41,287 bases of DNA from Desulfomonile tiedjei. GTDB taxonomy: Bacteria > Desulfobacterota > Desulfomonilia > Desulfomonilales > Desulfomonilaceae. The notes below the pieces were generated by a model, which did no database searches, had not been told where the DNA came from, and saw only the letters and a program-made list of their open reading frames with translations. A program made the translations under genes and the position numbers. Shown piece by piece: positions 9,894 to 41,287 of this stretch (the stretch's first letter is position 1; every line of letters starts with the position of its first letter). The stretch is taken from NCBI GenBank assembly GCA_016212935.1, contig JACRDE010000184.1, forward strand, positions 1 through 41,287, read 5' to 3'.

Positions 9894-11078
9894 TTACACC
9901 TTTTCAACTATCAAAGCGGCTCCCATTCCCCCTCCTACGCACAGGGTGGCCAGGCCCCGCTTGACGTCATCCCGTTTTTTCATTTCATGAATCAACGTTG
10001 TAAAGATGCGCGCTCCCGAGGCCCCGATAGGATGACCTAGAGCCACAGCTCCTCCGTTCACGTTGACTTTCTTTGAATCAAACCCAAGATCGGCTGCCAC
10101 TGCGAGAGTTTGTGCGGCAAAAGCCTCATTGGCCTCGATCAGGTCTATGTCGTTCAGCGTGAGCCCGGCTTTCTCGAGGGCTTTGCGTGTGGCCGGCACC
10201 GGACCGATCCCCATGATCTTTGGGTCCACGCCCGCCGACGCGTACGACACCACTTTAACCATAGGCTTGAGACCCAGTTCTTTTGCCTTTTCCGCGGACA
10301 TGACCAGGATCGCCGCTGCGCCATCGTTTATTCCGGATGCGTTGCCCGCGGTAACGGTCCCGTCCTTCTTGAAAGCCGGCTTCAGCTTAGAGACAGCTTC
10401 TATTGTCGTACCGAGACGCGGATGTTCGTCTGTGTCGAATACCTTTGGATCCCCTCTCCGCTGGGGAATGACCACAGGCACGATCTCATCCTTGAAGCGA
10501 CCATCCTTGATGGCCTTTTCAGCCAGCTGTTGGCTCAAGACGCTGAATTGATCCTGCTGATCGCGGGTGATCGAGTACTTCTCCGACACGTTCTCGGCCG
10601 TGATGCCCATATGATAATTGTTGAATATCTCCCAGAGTCCGTCATGGATCATGACGTCCACCATGACGTCGTCGTTCATGCGTGCCCCCCAACGGGCTTT
10701 TGTGAGCGCGTACGGAGCGGCCGACATATTCTCGGTGCCGCCGGCTATGACTACGTCCGCATCTCCTGCTTTAATTACTTGAGCAGCGAGTGAAACGGCT
10801 CTGAGGCCGGATGCGCAAACCTTGTTTATGGTCAGTGCGGGGACTTCCTGCGGAATACCTGATCTGATCACCACCTGTCGAGCCACGTTTTGCCCTTGAG
10901 CGGCCTGAAGCACGCAGCCGAAGATTAGTTCCTCCACTTGCGAAGGATCGATGCCCGTCCTTTTGATTAGTTCTTTTACTACGATGCTTCCCAGCTCCAC
11001 AGCGGGAACTCCGGTGAGGCTTCCTCCAAAAGACCCCACAGGCGTACGCACCGCGTCGATAATAACCACTTCCTTCAT
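9894..11078 (-). CDS. Acetyl-CoA C-acetyltransferase (thiolase)
   Basis: A 394-residue biosynthetic-type thiolase that joins two acetyl-CoA into acetoacetyl-CoA or cleaves it reversibly. Active-site residues are all visible: nucleophile Cys88 in [11 protein letters not shown], His349 in [17 protein letters not shown], and Cys380 in [23 protein letters not shown] is also present. ATG 11078 has AGGAGG seven bases upstream. Length and motifs match AtoB/PhaA/ThlA equally well, so no symbol is given. In a syntroph or sulfate reducer it could serve butyrate or fatty-acid oxidation, or polyhydroxyalkanoate synthesis; no other beta-oxidation gene is in the window. It follows the TAXI protein gene by about 104 bases on the same strand. 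Confidence 0.95.
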
Positions 11079-14986: not shown

Positions 14987-15464
14987 CCTGCCGGATTGTT
15001 TTGTTCAGGCAAAGAGGCCATCGTGGAAGGCCAGTAAAGTAGACACAAGAGCGACCCTTTCCACCCTTCAGTCGCCAATTTCGCGAAACACAATTACGGC
15101 GTTCAGCAAAGACAAGAATCCGCAGTCGGGCGGTCTGGGAAATTTCCTGGGGAGCTTTCCTCCGGTGGCAGGTCATGCTTGGTTGGGATGGCGTTCTATC
15201 AGCCGTCCTGCGTGCGCTTCAGTAGTAACATGACTTGCGAGAAAGAACCAGTTGACGATTTTTCAATTAAGTACAATCACACTACCCAACGTCACCCGGG
15301 GAAAGCCGAAGTCAAGAATTGACTGAAATGACTGGATTCCAGCGTCTGCTGGAATGACGGTAAGGGCTACGGCATACGGCCAGGTGGTACAAGCAAGACA
15401 TTTGGATGAGCAGGAAGCCATCTGCCGTACAGGGCGCCCTTGAACACGCCTTTGATACCACTTT
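14987..15464. other. Gene-free stretch with a REP hairpin
   Basis: No gene is supported. The minus-strand open frame at 15263-15472 contains the translation of a REP hairpin (VIPADAGIQ), a frequent artefact. The only clear structure is the hairpin at 15336-15355, listed separately. Confidence 0.5.
15336..15355. repeat. REP-type hairpin
   Basis: Perfect 8-bp arms ATTCCAGC (15336-15343) and GCTGGAAT (15348-15355), followed by GACGG. This is the common 'GGATTCC...GGAATGACG' extragenic palindrome of proteobacteria. A degenerate relative is at 24088-24107. Confidence 0.7.
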
Positions 15465-15669
15465 GCTTTCAAATATCTAAAATCGGGGAGGCACTTCTTA
15501 TAAGAAGTTGCTCCCCGAACCCCGCCTCAAGAACTTTTAGCACTCGCCGGAACCCCAAATTTTCTTTCAGGAAATGGGGATTCCGGCAAATGATAGAAGT
15601 TTCTGGGAGGGGGGGTTAGCGGGAAACTCTTTACTAAAGAGGGTCCCCCAAGCCTGCTTCTTTGAAAGC
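15465..15669. mobile_element. 205-bp MITE-like element, copy A (empty site)
   Basis: The ends are the perfect 9-bp inverted repeats GCTTTCAAA (15465-15473) and TTTGAAAGC (15661-15669). The interior folds into three hairpins: an 18-bp-arm stem TCGGGGAG...CTCCCCGA with CTTCTTATAAGAAG at its apex; a GCCGGAA...TTCCGGC stem (15546-15587) whose 27-base tip is 15553-15579; and a GGGGG...CCCCC stem containing CTCTTTA-C-TAAAGAG. It has no coding capacity. Copy B (24180-24501) matches it closely apart from a 117-bp insert at the apex of the first hairpin and an inverted tip in the second. Family membership is seen directly; mobility is inferred. Confidence 0.7.
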
Positions 15670-15950
15670 ACATTCCCATGAGAGGCTTACAGGAATATGC
15701 CCCAGCTTTGCCGGGGGGCGATTATGCGGTTTGGCAAAAGTTTTGTCCGTTGCAAGACCGATTCCTGTTAACACGTTAGTACGTTACCTGCAAAATGAAT
15801 AAGACCTACATTGTTAGTATGATGAAACTTTTTTGCCGGAACGGTCCGGAAAACCGGCTTTTTTTAAAAAGCGGGTTTTCCGGGTATCTTCGGTCATGAA
15901 TTTTGGCATTTGCTATAACAGGCCGGGCCTCCTTACTAGGATAAAGCTTA
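15670..15950. other. Intergenic, one long palindrome
   Basis: No gene is supported. The 38-base palindrome at 15846-15883 is the only marked structure. Confidence 0.4.
15846..15883. terminator. 38-base palindrome, possible bidirectional terminator
   Basis: CCGGAAAACC (15846-15855) pairs with GGTTTTCCGG (15874-15883). Within it, GCTTTTT (15857-15863) pairs with AAAAAGC (15866-15872), with one G-G mismatch. That is 17 of 18 pairs over a 2-base centre. The internal T/A runs could allow termination in both directions, but no T-run follows the stem. Confidence 0.45.
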
Positions 15951-24107: not shown

Positions 24108-24179
24108 AGAGCTTTGCAACTTAGGATTGCGATACTGCTAAAGACAAACGGGAGTAGGACCGGTATCTTATGTCATTTC

Positions 24180-24501
24180 GCTTTCAAATATTTAAAATCG
24201 GGGAGGCACTTCTTATTAATAACGTTCGATTTCTTGTTTTCTCGAGAAGAAGTTGGATTGCGATCGATGTAACTTACTGCTTCTATGAGAGACATCGGAC
24301 GAAGTTTGGTTGCGGCCGCAGGCCGCGTCCTGTAAGAAGTTCCTCCCCGAACCCCGCCTCAAGAACTTTTAGCACTCGCCGGAACCCCCATTTCCTGAAA
24401 GGAAATTTGGGGATTCCGGCAAATGATAGAAGTTTCTGGAAGGGGGGTTGGAGGAGAACTCTCTACAAAGAGGGTCCCCCCAATCTTACCTCTTTGAATG
24501 C
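24180..24501. mobile_element. MITE-like element, copy B, with nested insert
   Basis: The ends are GCTTTCAAA (24180-24188) and TTTGAATGC (24493-24501). Total length is 322 bp, which equals copy A (205) plus the 117-bp insert at 24216-24332. Outside the insert it closely matches copy A, including the string from CCGAACCCCGCCTCAAGAAC to ACTCGCCGGAA. The hairpin tip at 24386-24412 is inverted relative to copy A. Confidence 0.7.
24216..24332. mobile_element. 117-bp insert at the hairpin apex
   Basis: It lies between CTTCTTA and TAAGAAG, which abut directly in copy A. The available 117 bases plus flanks to 24334 are identical to 41169-41287. It contains GCGGCC-GCA-GGCCGC near its right end and TTCTCGAGAA in the middle. 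Read on the minus strand it is stop-free for all 39 codons (…KLRPMSLIEAVSYIDRNPT…). No terminal inverted repeat or target duplication is evident. Confidence 0.6.
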
Positions 24502-24518
24502 GGACTGTTATTAAAGAG

Positions 24519-41021: not shown

Positions 41022-41287
41022 GCTAAGCACGCCGTACCTTTCCGCCCTTCGTCATCCTGGAATTGCCCGGTTCGTGAAGATGTCTTCCGAGCAGTCTTGA
41101 CTACCTCCGGAGCAATGTTCTTATACGAATTCGCAATCAAAGAAGCAAAATCGGAGAAACCCTTCTTATTAATAACGTTCGATTTCTTGTTTTCTCGAGA
41201 AGAAGTTGGATTGCGATCGATGTAACTTACTGCTTCTATGAGAGACATCGGACGAAGTTTGGTTGCGGCCGCAGGCCGCGTCCTGTA
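41022..41287. other. Intergenic tail and truncated repeat copy
   Basis: After the M23 gene there is no supported gene. The minus-strand frame 40904-41248 starts inside the 117-bp insert and overlaps the M23 gene, so it is not called. Copy C of the MITE-like element starts at 41132 and runs off the window. Confidence 0.5.
41132..41287. mobile_element. MITE-like element, copy C (cut by window edge), with the nested insert
   Basis: 41132-41168 aligns without gaps to 24179-24215 of copy B with 27 of 37 identities (CGCAATCAAA for CGCTTTCAAA). From 41169 to the window end, all 119 bases equal 24216-24334. So the same insert sits at the same point of a diverged host. Confidence 0.65.

What the first reader, a model, noticed from the sequence alone, without database searches (positions are those of the whole stretch)
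24216..24332. 117-bp insert placed exactly at the apex of a hairpin, identical in two diverged hosts
In copy A the arms CTTCTTA and TAAGAAG abut. In copy B a 117-bp sequence separates them, and the length difference between A (205) and B (322) is exactly 117. Copy C at 41132 has the same insert at the same spot: 119 of 119 bases identical, although its host arm is only 27/37 identical. This suggests a young, site-specific small element that recognises the tip of an 18-bp-arm hairpin. It has no terminal inverted repeats and no target duplication. The insert is 39 codons and stop-free on the minus strand, recalling in-frame palindromic elements. The alternative is loss of the loop from A.
Basis: partly seen in the sequence, partly recalled or inferred. 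Interest (0 to 1): 0.68.

Follow-up and report, generated by a model that had tools for sequence, protein, structure and literature searches.

The report
Small element inserted at hairpin tips
A 117-base DNA segment, present about 42 times in a Desulfomonile-like genome, always sits at the exact tip of hairpin-forming repeats of several different sequence types, which suggests a tiny mobile element that picks its target by hairpin tip, although the enzyme that moves it was not found.

Summary
The insert is real and not a one-off. The window is contig C31 of a 5.6-Mb draft genome, apparently Desulfomonile-like. X (24215-24331, 117 bp) occurs at least 42 times there, 95-100% identical. Every copy with a visible junction sits, in one orientation, between CTTCTT and G at a hairpin apex. 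The hosts are MITEs with TNA target duplications: about 90 or 222 bp empty, 207 or 339 bp filled. At least three host arm types exist both filled and empty. X differs 2-3% within and between types, while arms differ 33-57% between types; filled state does not follow arm similarity. X has therefore spread among pre-existing hairpins; a lone deletion in copy A is ruled out. Another genus (G002) has a relative with the same ends, a different middle and the same hairpin-tip position. Copy C's identity is partly an assembly effect: the contig ends 126 bp (k-1) into the repeat. X has no terminal inverted repeats, no target duplication, and stem-loops near both ends, as in IS200/IS605-derived PATEs. 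No linked Y1 or IS110 gene was found, so the engine is inferred. Closest precedents: Haloquadratum PATEs and SMR-A elements, and insertion sequences that target REP palindromes. New variant of a known kind.

The parts
24215..24331 (+). Insert X, 117 bp, 5'-ATTAATAACG...GGCCGCGTCCT-3'; no terminal inverted repeats, no target duplication
   Evidence: boundary from type C hosts, where empty CTTCTT^GAAAGAAG and filled CTTCTT[X]GAAAGAAG share the G
24209..24214 (+). CTTCTT, 5' side of the insertion point (hairpin apex)
24332..24339 (+). GTAAGAAG, 3' side of the insertion point
24198..24214 (+). 5' arm of host hairpin 1 in copy B
   Evidence: inverted repeat 24198-24215 / 24333-24350
24333..24350 (+). 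3' arm of host hairpin 1 in copy B
24171..24510 (+). Filled host MITE (copy B), 340 bp, flanked by TTA (24168-24170 and 24511-24513)
   Evidence: size class of about 339 bp = 222 + 117
15456..15678 (+). Empty host MITE (copy A), 223 bp, flanked by TGA (15453-15455 and 15679-15681), apex CTTCTTATAAGAAG at 15494-15507
41124..41287 (+). Left part of a filled host MITE with type B arms (copy C), cut by the contig end; X at 41168-41284
24222..24301 (+). Large stem-loop of X (CGTTCGAT ... ATCGGACG, approximate limits) in the predicted single-strand fold
   Evidence: z -3.1 (DNA), -3.5 (RNA)
24308..24330 (+). GC-rich stem-loop at the right end of X (GGTTGCGGCCGCAGGCCGCGTCC)
   Evidence: shared with X' in G002

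Best explanation
X is a non-autonomous mobile element that inserts, without target duplication, between the T and G of the tip of host hairpins (CTTCTT^G), and so lives inside other small repeats (MITEs). Shown by sequence: exact and repeated insertion point, one orientation, presence in at least three host arm types in this genome and in other arm sequences in G002, conserved ends with an exchangeable middle, and lower divergence than the hosts. Inferred: it is moved in trans by an enzyme that works on single-stranded or hairpin DNA, most likely an IS200/IS605-type (HUH, Y1) transposase, which needs no terminal inverted repeats, makes no target duplication, reads stem-loops near both ends and inserts 3' of a short motif; the host hairpin, extruded as a cruciform or exposed on the lagging strand, would present that motif at its unpaired tip. 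Rough split: mobile and tip-targeted about 0.7; Y1-type engine about 0.4.
For: At least 42 copies, none seen outside an apex, all partial ones cut only by contig ends. Three host types with matching empty and filled forms at the same base: A/B CTTCTT^GTAAGAAG, C CTTCTT^GAAAGAAG. X divergence 2.2-3.0% within and 2.6-2.8% between types, arms 33-57% between types; single-base variants of X shared across types. X less diverged than its own host's right part in 36 of 36 pairs, no positive correlation. Filled state not clustered by arm similarity (47.7 of 79 against 43.7 expected, p 0.20). MITE size classes 90/207 and 222/339 bp. In G002 a relative (left 43 nt 81%, right 35 nt 91%) with unrelated middle sits at CTTCTT^GCAAGAAG and CCTTTTT^GAAAAAAGG, with empty CTTCTTGCAAGAAG present. 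X folds better than shuffles. PATEs are defined by the same anatomy, including a longer 5' than 3' distance to the palindrome (PMC3119063).
Against: No autonomous partner: Y1 hits in G000 are three fragments, none next to X, and there is none in G002, though both genomes are incomplete and multi-copy genes are easily lost from such assemblies. The two end stem-loops differ in sequence, unlike those of most PATEs. No strain pair was available to see X present and absent at one and the same locus. The fixed orientation could also come from few insertions followed by copying of filled MITEs. Some G002 copies have no recognisable left arm.
Confidence: 0.55

Rival explanations
1. Gene conversion or other homologous recombination between MITE copies spreads X from filled to empty hosts; no transposase acts on X.
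For: The MITEs are numerous and similar, and chimeric hosts exist, such as type B left arm with type A right arm (L191, L052, L172). Explains the low divergence of X and its fixed orientation without a transposase.
Against: Between types A, B and C only about 6 + 6-8 bp next to X are alike, and type-specific bases start immediately outside (for example GAAAGAAG in type C). Does not explain how X' came to sit in the differently built CCTTTTT^GAAAAAAGG hairpin in G002.
Confidence: 0.2
2. X is moved by another recombinase: an IS110-type bridge-RNA enzyme, or a DDE enzyme of the IS1397 (IS3) kind that targets palindromes.
For: IS3, IS110, IS4, IS256 and IS5 family elements with REP palindromes as targets are documented (PMC1525189); IS110 elements lack classical ends (from memory).
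Against: No IS110 Transposase_20 gene in G000 or G002, although 21 are found in G001 by the same search. DDE enzymes normally leave target duplications and use inverted ends; neither is present.
Confidence: 0.12
3. X is an ancient integral part of the MITE, kept by selection (for example as a structured RNA), and empty copies arose by repeated precise loss.
For: X or X' and the apex occur together in two genera; X folds into two stem-loops.
Against: About 146 empty apexes against about 42 filled; X and X' share only their ends, so the middle is not constrained across genera; X is equally similar across types whose arms differ by a third or more; no Rfam match in the window.
Confidence: 0.08

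Closest known systems
PATEs, palindrome-associated transposable elements of Haloquadratum (IS605-derived; PMC3119063)
   Same: Short, no transposase, no terminal inverted repeats, no target duplication, stem-loops near both ends, longer distance at the 5' end; some families over 90% identical
   Different: X's two stem-loops differ in sequence; no related IS605-type transposon found; X is confined to hairpin tips of other elements
SMR-A, small mobile repeats of Haloquadratum (PMC3119063)
   Same: About 110 bp, up to 54 copies, no target duplication, insert within palindromes of other small mobile elements; mobiliser unknown
   Different: SMR-A have prominent terminal inverted repeats, X has none; archaeal; different hosts (PATEs and IS605-type transposons)
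REP-targeting insertion sequences (IS1397, ISKpn1, IS621, ISPpu9, ISPpu10, ISPsy8; PMC1525189)
   Same: Insert at one point within palindromic repeats
   Different: They are complete insertion sequences with their own transposase; ISPsy8 makes a 3-bp duplication
GTAG/CGTC-tagged REPs and RAYTs (PMC3733652)
   Same: Stem-loop repeats possibly moved by Y1 enzymes; X' in G002 contains a GTAG-tagged stem-loop
   Different: X is 117 bp with two unlike stem-loops; the CGTC at its right stem-loop lies on the 3' side, not as an unpaired 5' tag

Membership tests
PATE (IS200/IS605-derived, non-autonomous) | No terminal inverted repeats, no target duplication, too short to code | tested here: met
PATE (IS200/IS605-derived, non-autonomous) | Palindromes close to both ends | tested here: met
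   predicted fold of X; right stem-loop conserved in X'; the left one is less certain
PATE (IS200/IS605-derived, non-autonomous) | Ends related to an IS605-type transposon with a Y1 gene | tested here: not met
   and BLAST of X against the Y1 loci: no related ends; genomes incomplete. Hence not filed as a PATE
SMR-A | About 110 bp, multi-copy, inserts within palindromes of other elements | tested here: met
SMR-A | Prominent terminal inverted repeats | tested here: not met
   X begins ATTAATAACG and ends GGCCGCGTCCT
IS110-type (bridge RNA) derivative | IS110 recombinase in the genome | tested here: not met
   none in G000 and G002, 21 in G001; genomes 86% and 82% complete
MITE (the host element) | Terminal inverted repeats and target duplication | tested here: met
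   TNA 3-bp duplication in 29 of 54 against 10.9 expected (largest of 1000 shuffles 20)
In-frame palindromic element (Rickettsia RPE type) | Lies in frame inside coding genes | tested here: not met
   only 3 of 22 inside any ORF of at least 120 aa; both strands open in one frame
Self-moving or trans-moved element | Gain of X at one locus between strains | not testable with these tools
   one genome per species held

The most novel reading that the evidence does not exclude
A hyperparasitic element that selects DNA hairpin tips as such: a single-strand transposition system whose target is the unpaired apex of extruded cruciforms (TT^G), largely independent of the stem sequence, using MITE hairpins as safe harbours.
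Probability: 0.3. Interest if true: 0.65.

Novelty: new variant of a known kind. Interest (0 to 1): 0.5.

Why it matters
If X recognises hairpin tips, its about 42 filled and about 146 empty sites in one genome form a natural record of where hairpins are exposed as single strands in the cell, and a natural experiment on structure-guided rather than sequence-guided target choice. It would also show, in bacteria, the nesting of one small mobile repeat in the palindrome of another that was described as enigmatic in Haloquadratum (SMR-A).

Tried and rejected
Lone deletion in copy A: rejected (about 146 empty apexes). In-frame palindromic or coding element: rejected. Known RNA family: no Rfam match at gathering score in the window. 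IS110 engine: no gene. CGTC-tagged REP membership: considered because of GGCCGCGTC at the right end; tag on the wrong side. Wide search with the right stem-loop: three hits belong to the G002 relative (records titled Desulfomonile tiedjei isolate SulCav); the others (Planctomycetes, Acidobacteria, Kiritimatiellae) carry only the short stem-loop in other surroundings, no X. Plasmids, phages, viral contigs: no match. Other held genomes of the class and phylum: only G000 and G002. Sites with a base other than G or A after CTTCTT turned out to be variant loops or rearranged ends, not an autonomous element.

Full report
What is there. The window is the whole of contig 31 of a draft genome of 5.6 Mb in 647 contigs, 86% complete. 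G001 is of the same genus, G002 of the same family. G002's contigs agree in length (7605, 7839, 42453) with records titled Desulfomonile tiedjei isolate SulCav. I infer that the window belongs to a Desulfomonile-like bacterium; G001, with 6.5 Mb in 2 contigs, is probably the D. tiedjei type strain (from memory).

Copy A at 15456-15678 and copy B at 24171-24510 are two members of one MITE family. B contains 117 extra bases (X) between hairpin arms that abut in A. Copy C at 41124-41287 is only the left part of a third member; the contig ends in it. B and C share 126 bases exactly, beginning at CTTCTT where their arms part. Other contigs also end 126 bases into the repeat (C118, C481). That is the pattern expected from an assembly with k = 127 (inference), so the perfect identity of B and C carries little information, and the age argument must rest on other copies.

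Other copies. The genome has at least 42 copies of X, 95-100% identical (40 scored, two more). Every partial copy is cut by a contig end, none inside a contig. All copies with a visible junction sit at CTTCTT^G or a one-base variant of it. Host arms fall into at least three types: A (GGGGAGGCA-CTTCTT), B (GGAGAAACC-CTTCTT) and C (GGGGAGGAC-CTTCTT and variants), each present filled and empty. There are 146 palindromic apexes within one mismatch of CTTCTTATAAGAAG, most reading CTTCTTGTAAGAAG, plus many type C apexes CTTCTTGAAAGAAG. In type C the bases after the insertion point are GAAAG in both empty and filled hosts, which fixes the insertion point between T and G. X is therefore 24215-24331. 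X always has the same orientation relative to the host's left and right arms.

The host. The MITE begins TAC..., ends ...GTA and is flanked by a TNA duplication (29 of 54 against 10.9 expected). Its main size classes are about 90 and 222 bp empty and about 207 and 339 bp filled, so X adds 117 in both. The long form contains three hairpins; X was found only in the first. A TNA duplication resembles that of some IS5-family elements (from memory, not tested).

Which came first. X differs by 2.2% (within B), 3.0% (within A) and 2.7% (between A and B), while the left arms differ by 9%, 17% and 33%. Variants of X are shared across host types (positions 83, 87, 110). In long hosts X is less diverged than the host's right part in all 36 pairs, with no positive correlation. 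Filled and empty hosts are not clustered by arm similarity. X has therefore moved among existing hosts rather than descended with them; independent loss alone would leave X as diverged as its arms.

A relative in another genus. G002 has several copies of X', whose left end (81% over 43 nt) and right end (91% over 35 nt) match X, while the middle is unrelated and includes a GTAG-tagged stem-loop and an ACCACCAAGGCGCCAAG repeat. L103 and L148 sit at CTTCTT^GCAAGAAG in hairpins whose empty form is present (L210, L211); L154 sits in a hairpin with other arms (CCTTTTT^GAAAAAAGG). Conserved ends around an exchangeable middle are typical of transposable elements. Some G002 copies are decayed and their left arm is not recognisable (L101, L166), so strict confinement to apexes is shown for G000, not for G002.

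Mechanism. X has no terminal inverted repeats and no target duplication, and its single strand is predicted to fold into two stem-loops, one reaching almost to the right end. This is the anatomy of the IS605-derived elements called PATEs (PMC3119063). An enzyme acting on single strands would naturally meet its motif at the unpaired tip of a hairpin. The engine was not found: three Y1 fragments in G000, none in G002, no similarity of their surroundings to X, and no IS110 gene in either. I therefore hold insertion at the tip as likely and the Y1 engine as a lead. Gene conversion among MITEs is the main rival.

Known kinds. Haloquadratum SMR-A elements (about 110 bp, up to 54 copies, no duplication, inserting in palindromes of PATEs) are the closest precedent in behaviour, with an unknown mobiliser; they have terminal inverted repeats, X has none. 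Insertion sequences that target REP palindromes are a second precedent. X fits none of these families fully and is best called a new variant of a known kind.

Noticed in passing
window 24171-24510, 15456-15678; genome-wide: A large MITE family with TNA duplications, 90 and 222 bp forms, probably over 140 copies in one genome; arm types A, B and C and chimeras between them. Its parent transposase was not sought.
   Followed up: partly
L100, L183, L184, L233 (G000 C532, C133, C145, C321): Another palindromic repeat (CATAGGCGCTAACTT ... AAGTTAGCGCCTATG, or parts of it) sits inside some of the same MITEs, so nesting of small repeats is not rare in this genome.
   Followed up: no
L145, L150, L156 (G004, G006): Related genomes carry near-perfect GC-rich hairpins such as CCGGGGAGGCCCCTTTTTGCAAAAAGGGGCCTCCCCGG, some followed by ACCCCTCCACCAA, alike in layout to the host hairpin here, without X.
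   Followed up: no
L110 (G000 C364 near 10799-10996): A RAYT-like Y1 gene with an in-frame TAG, flanked by inverted GGCAGGCTGGAAAGCCTGCC-type repeats, looks like a decayed REP-transposase unit.
   Followed up: no
L199 (G000 C438:9865-9912): A decayed right end of an X-like element followed by a right arm, with no left end: perhaps an old relic, which would mean that X-like elements were in this lineage before the recent spread.
   Followed up: partly
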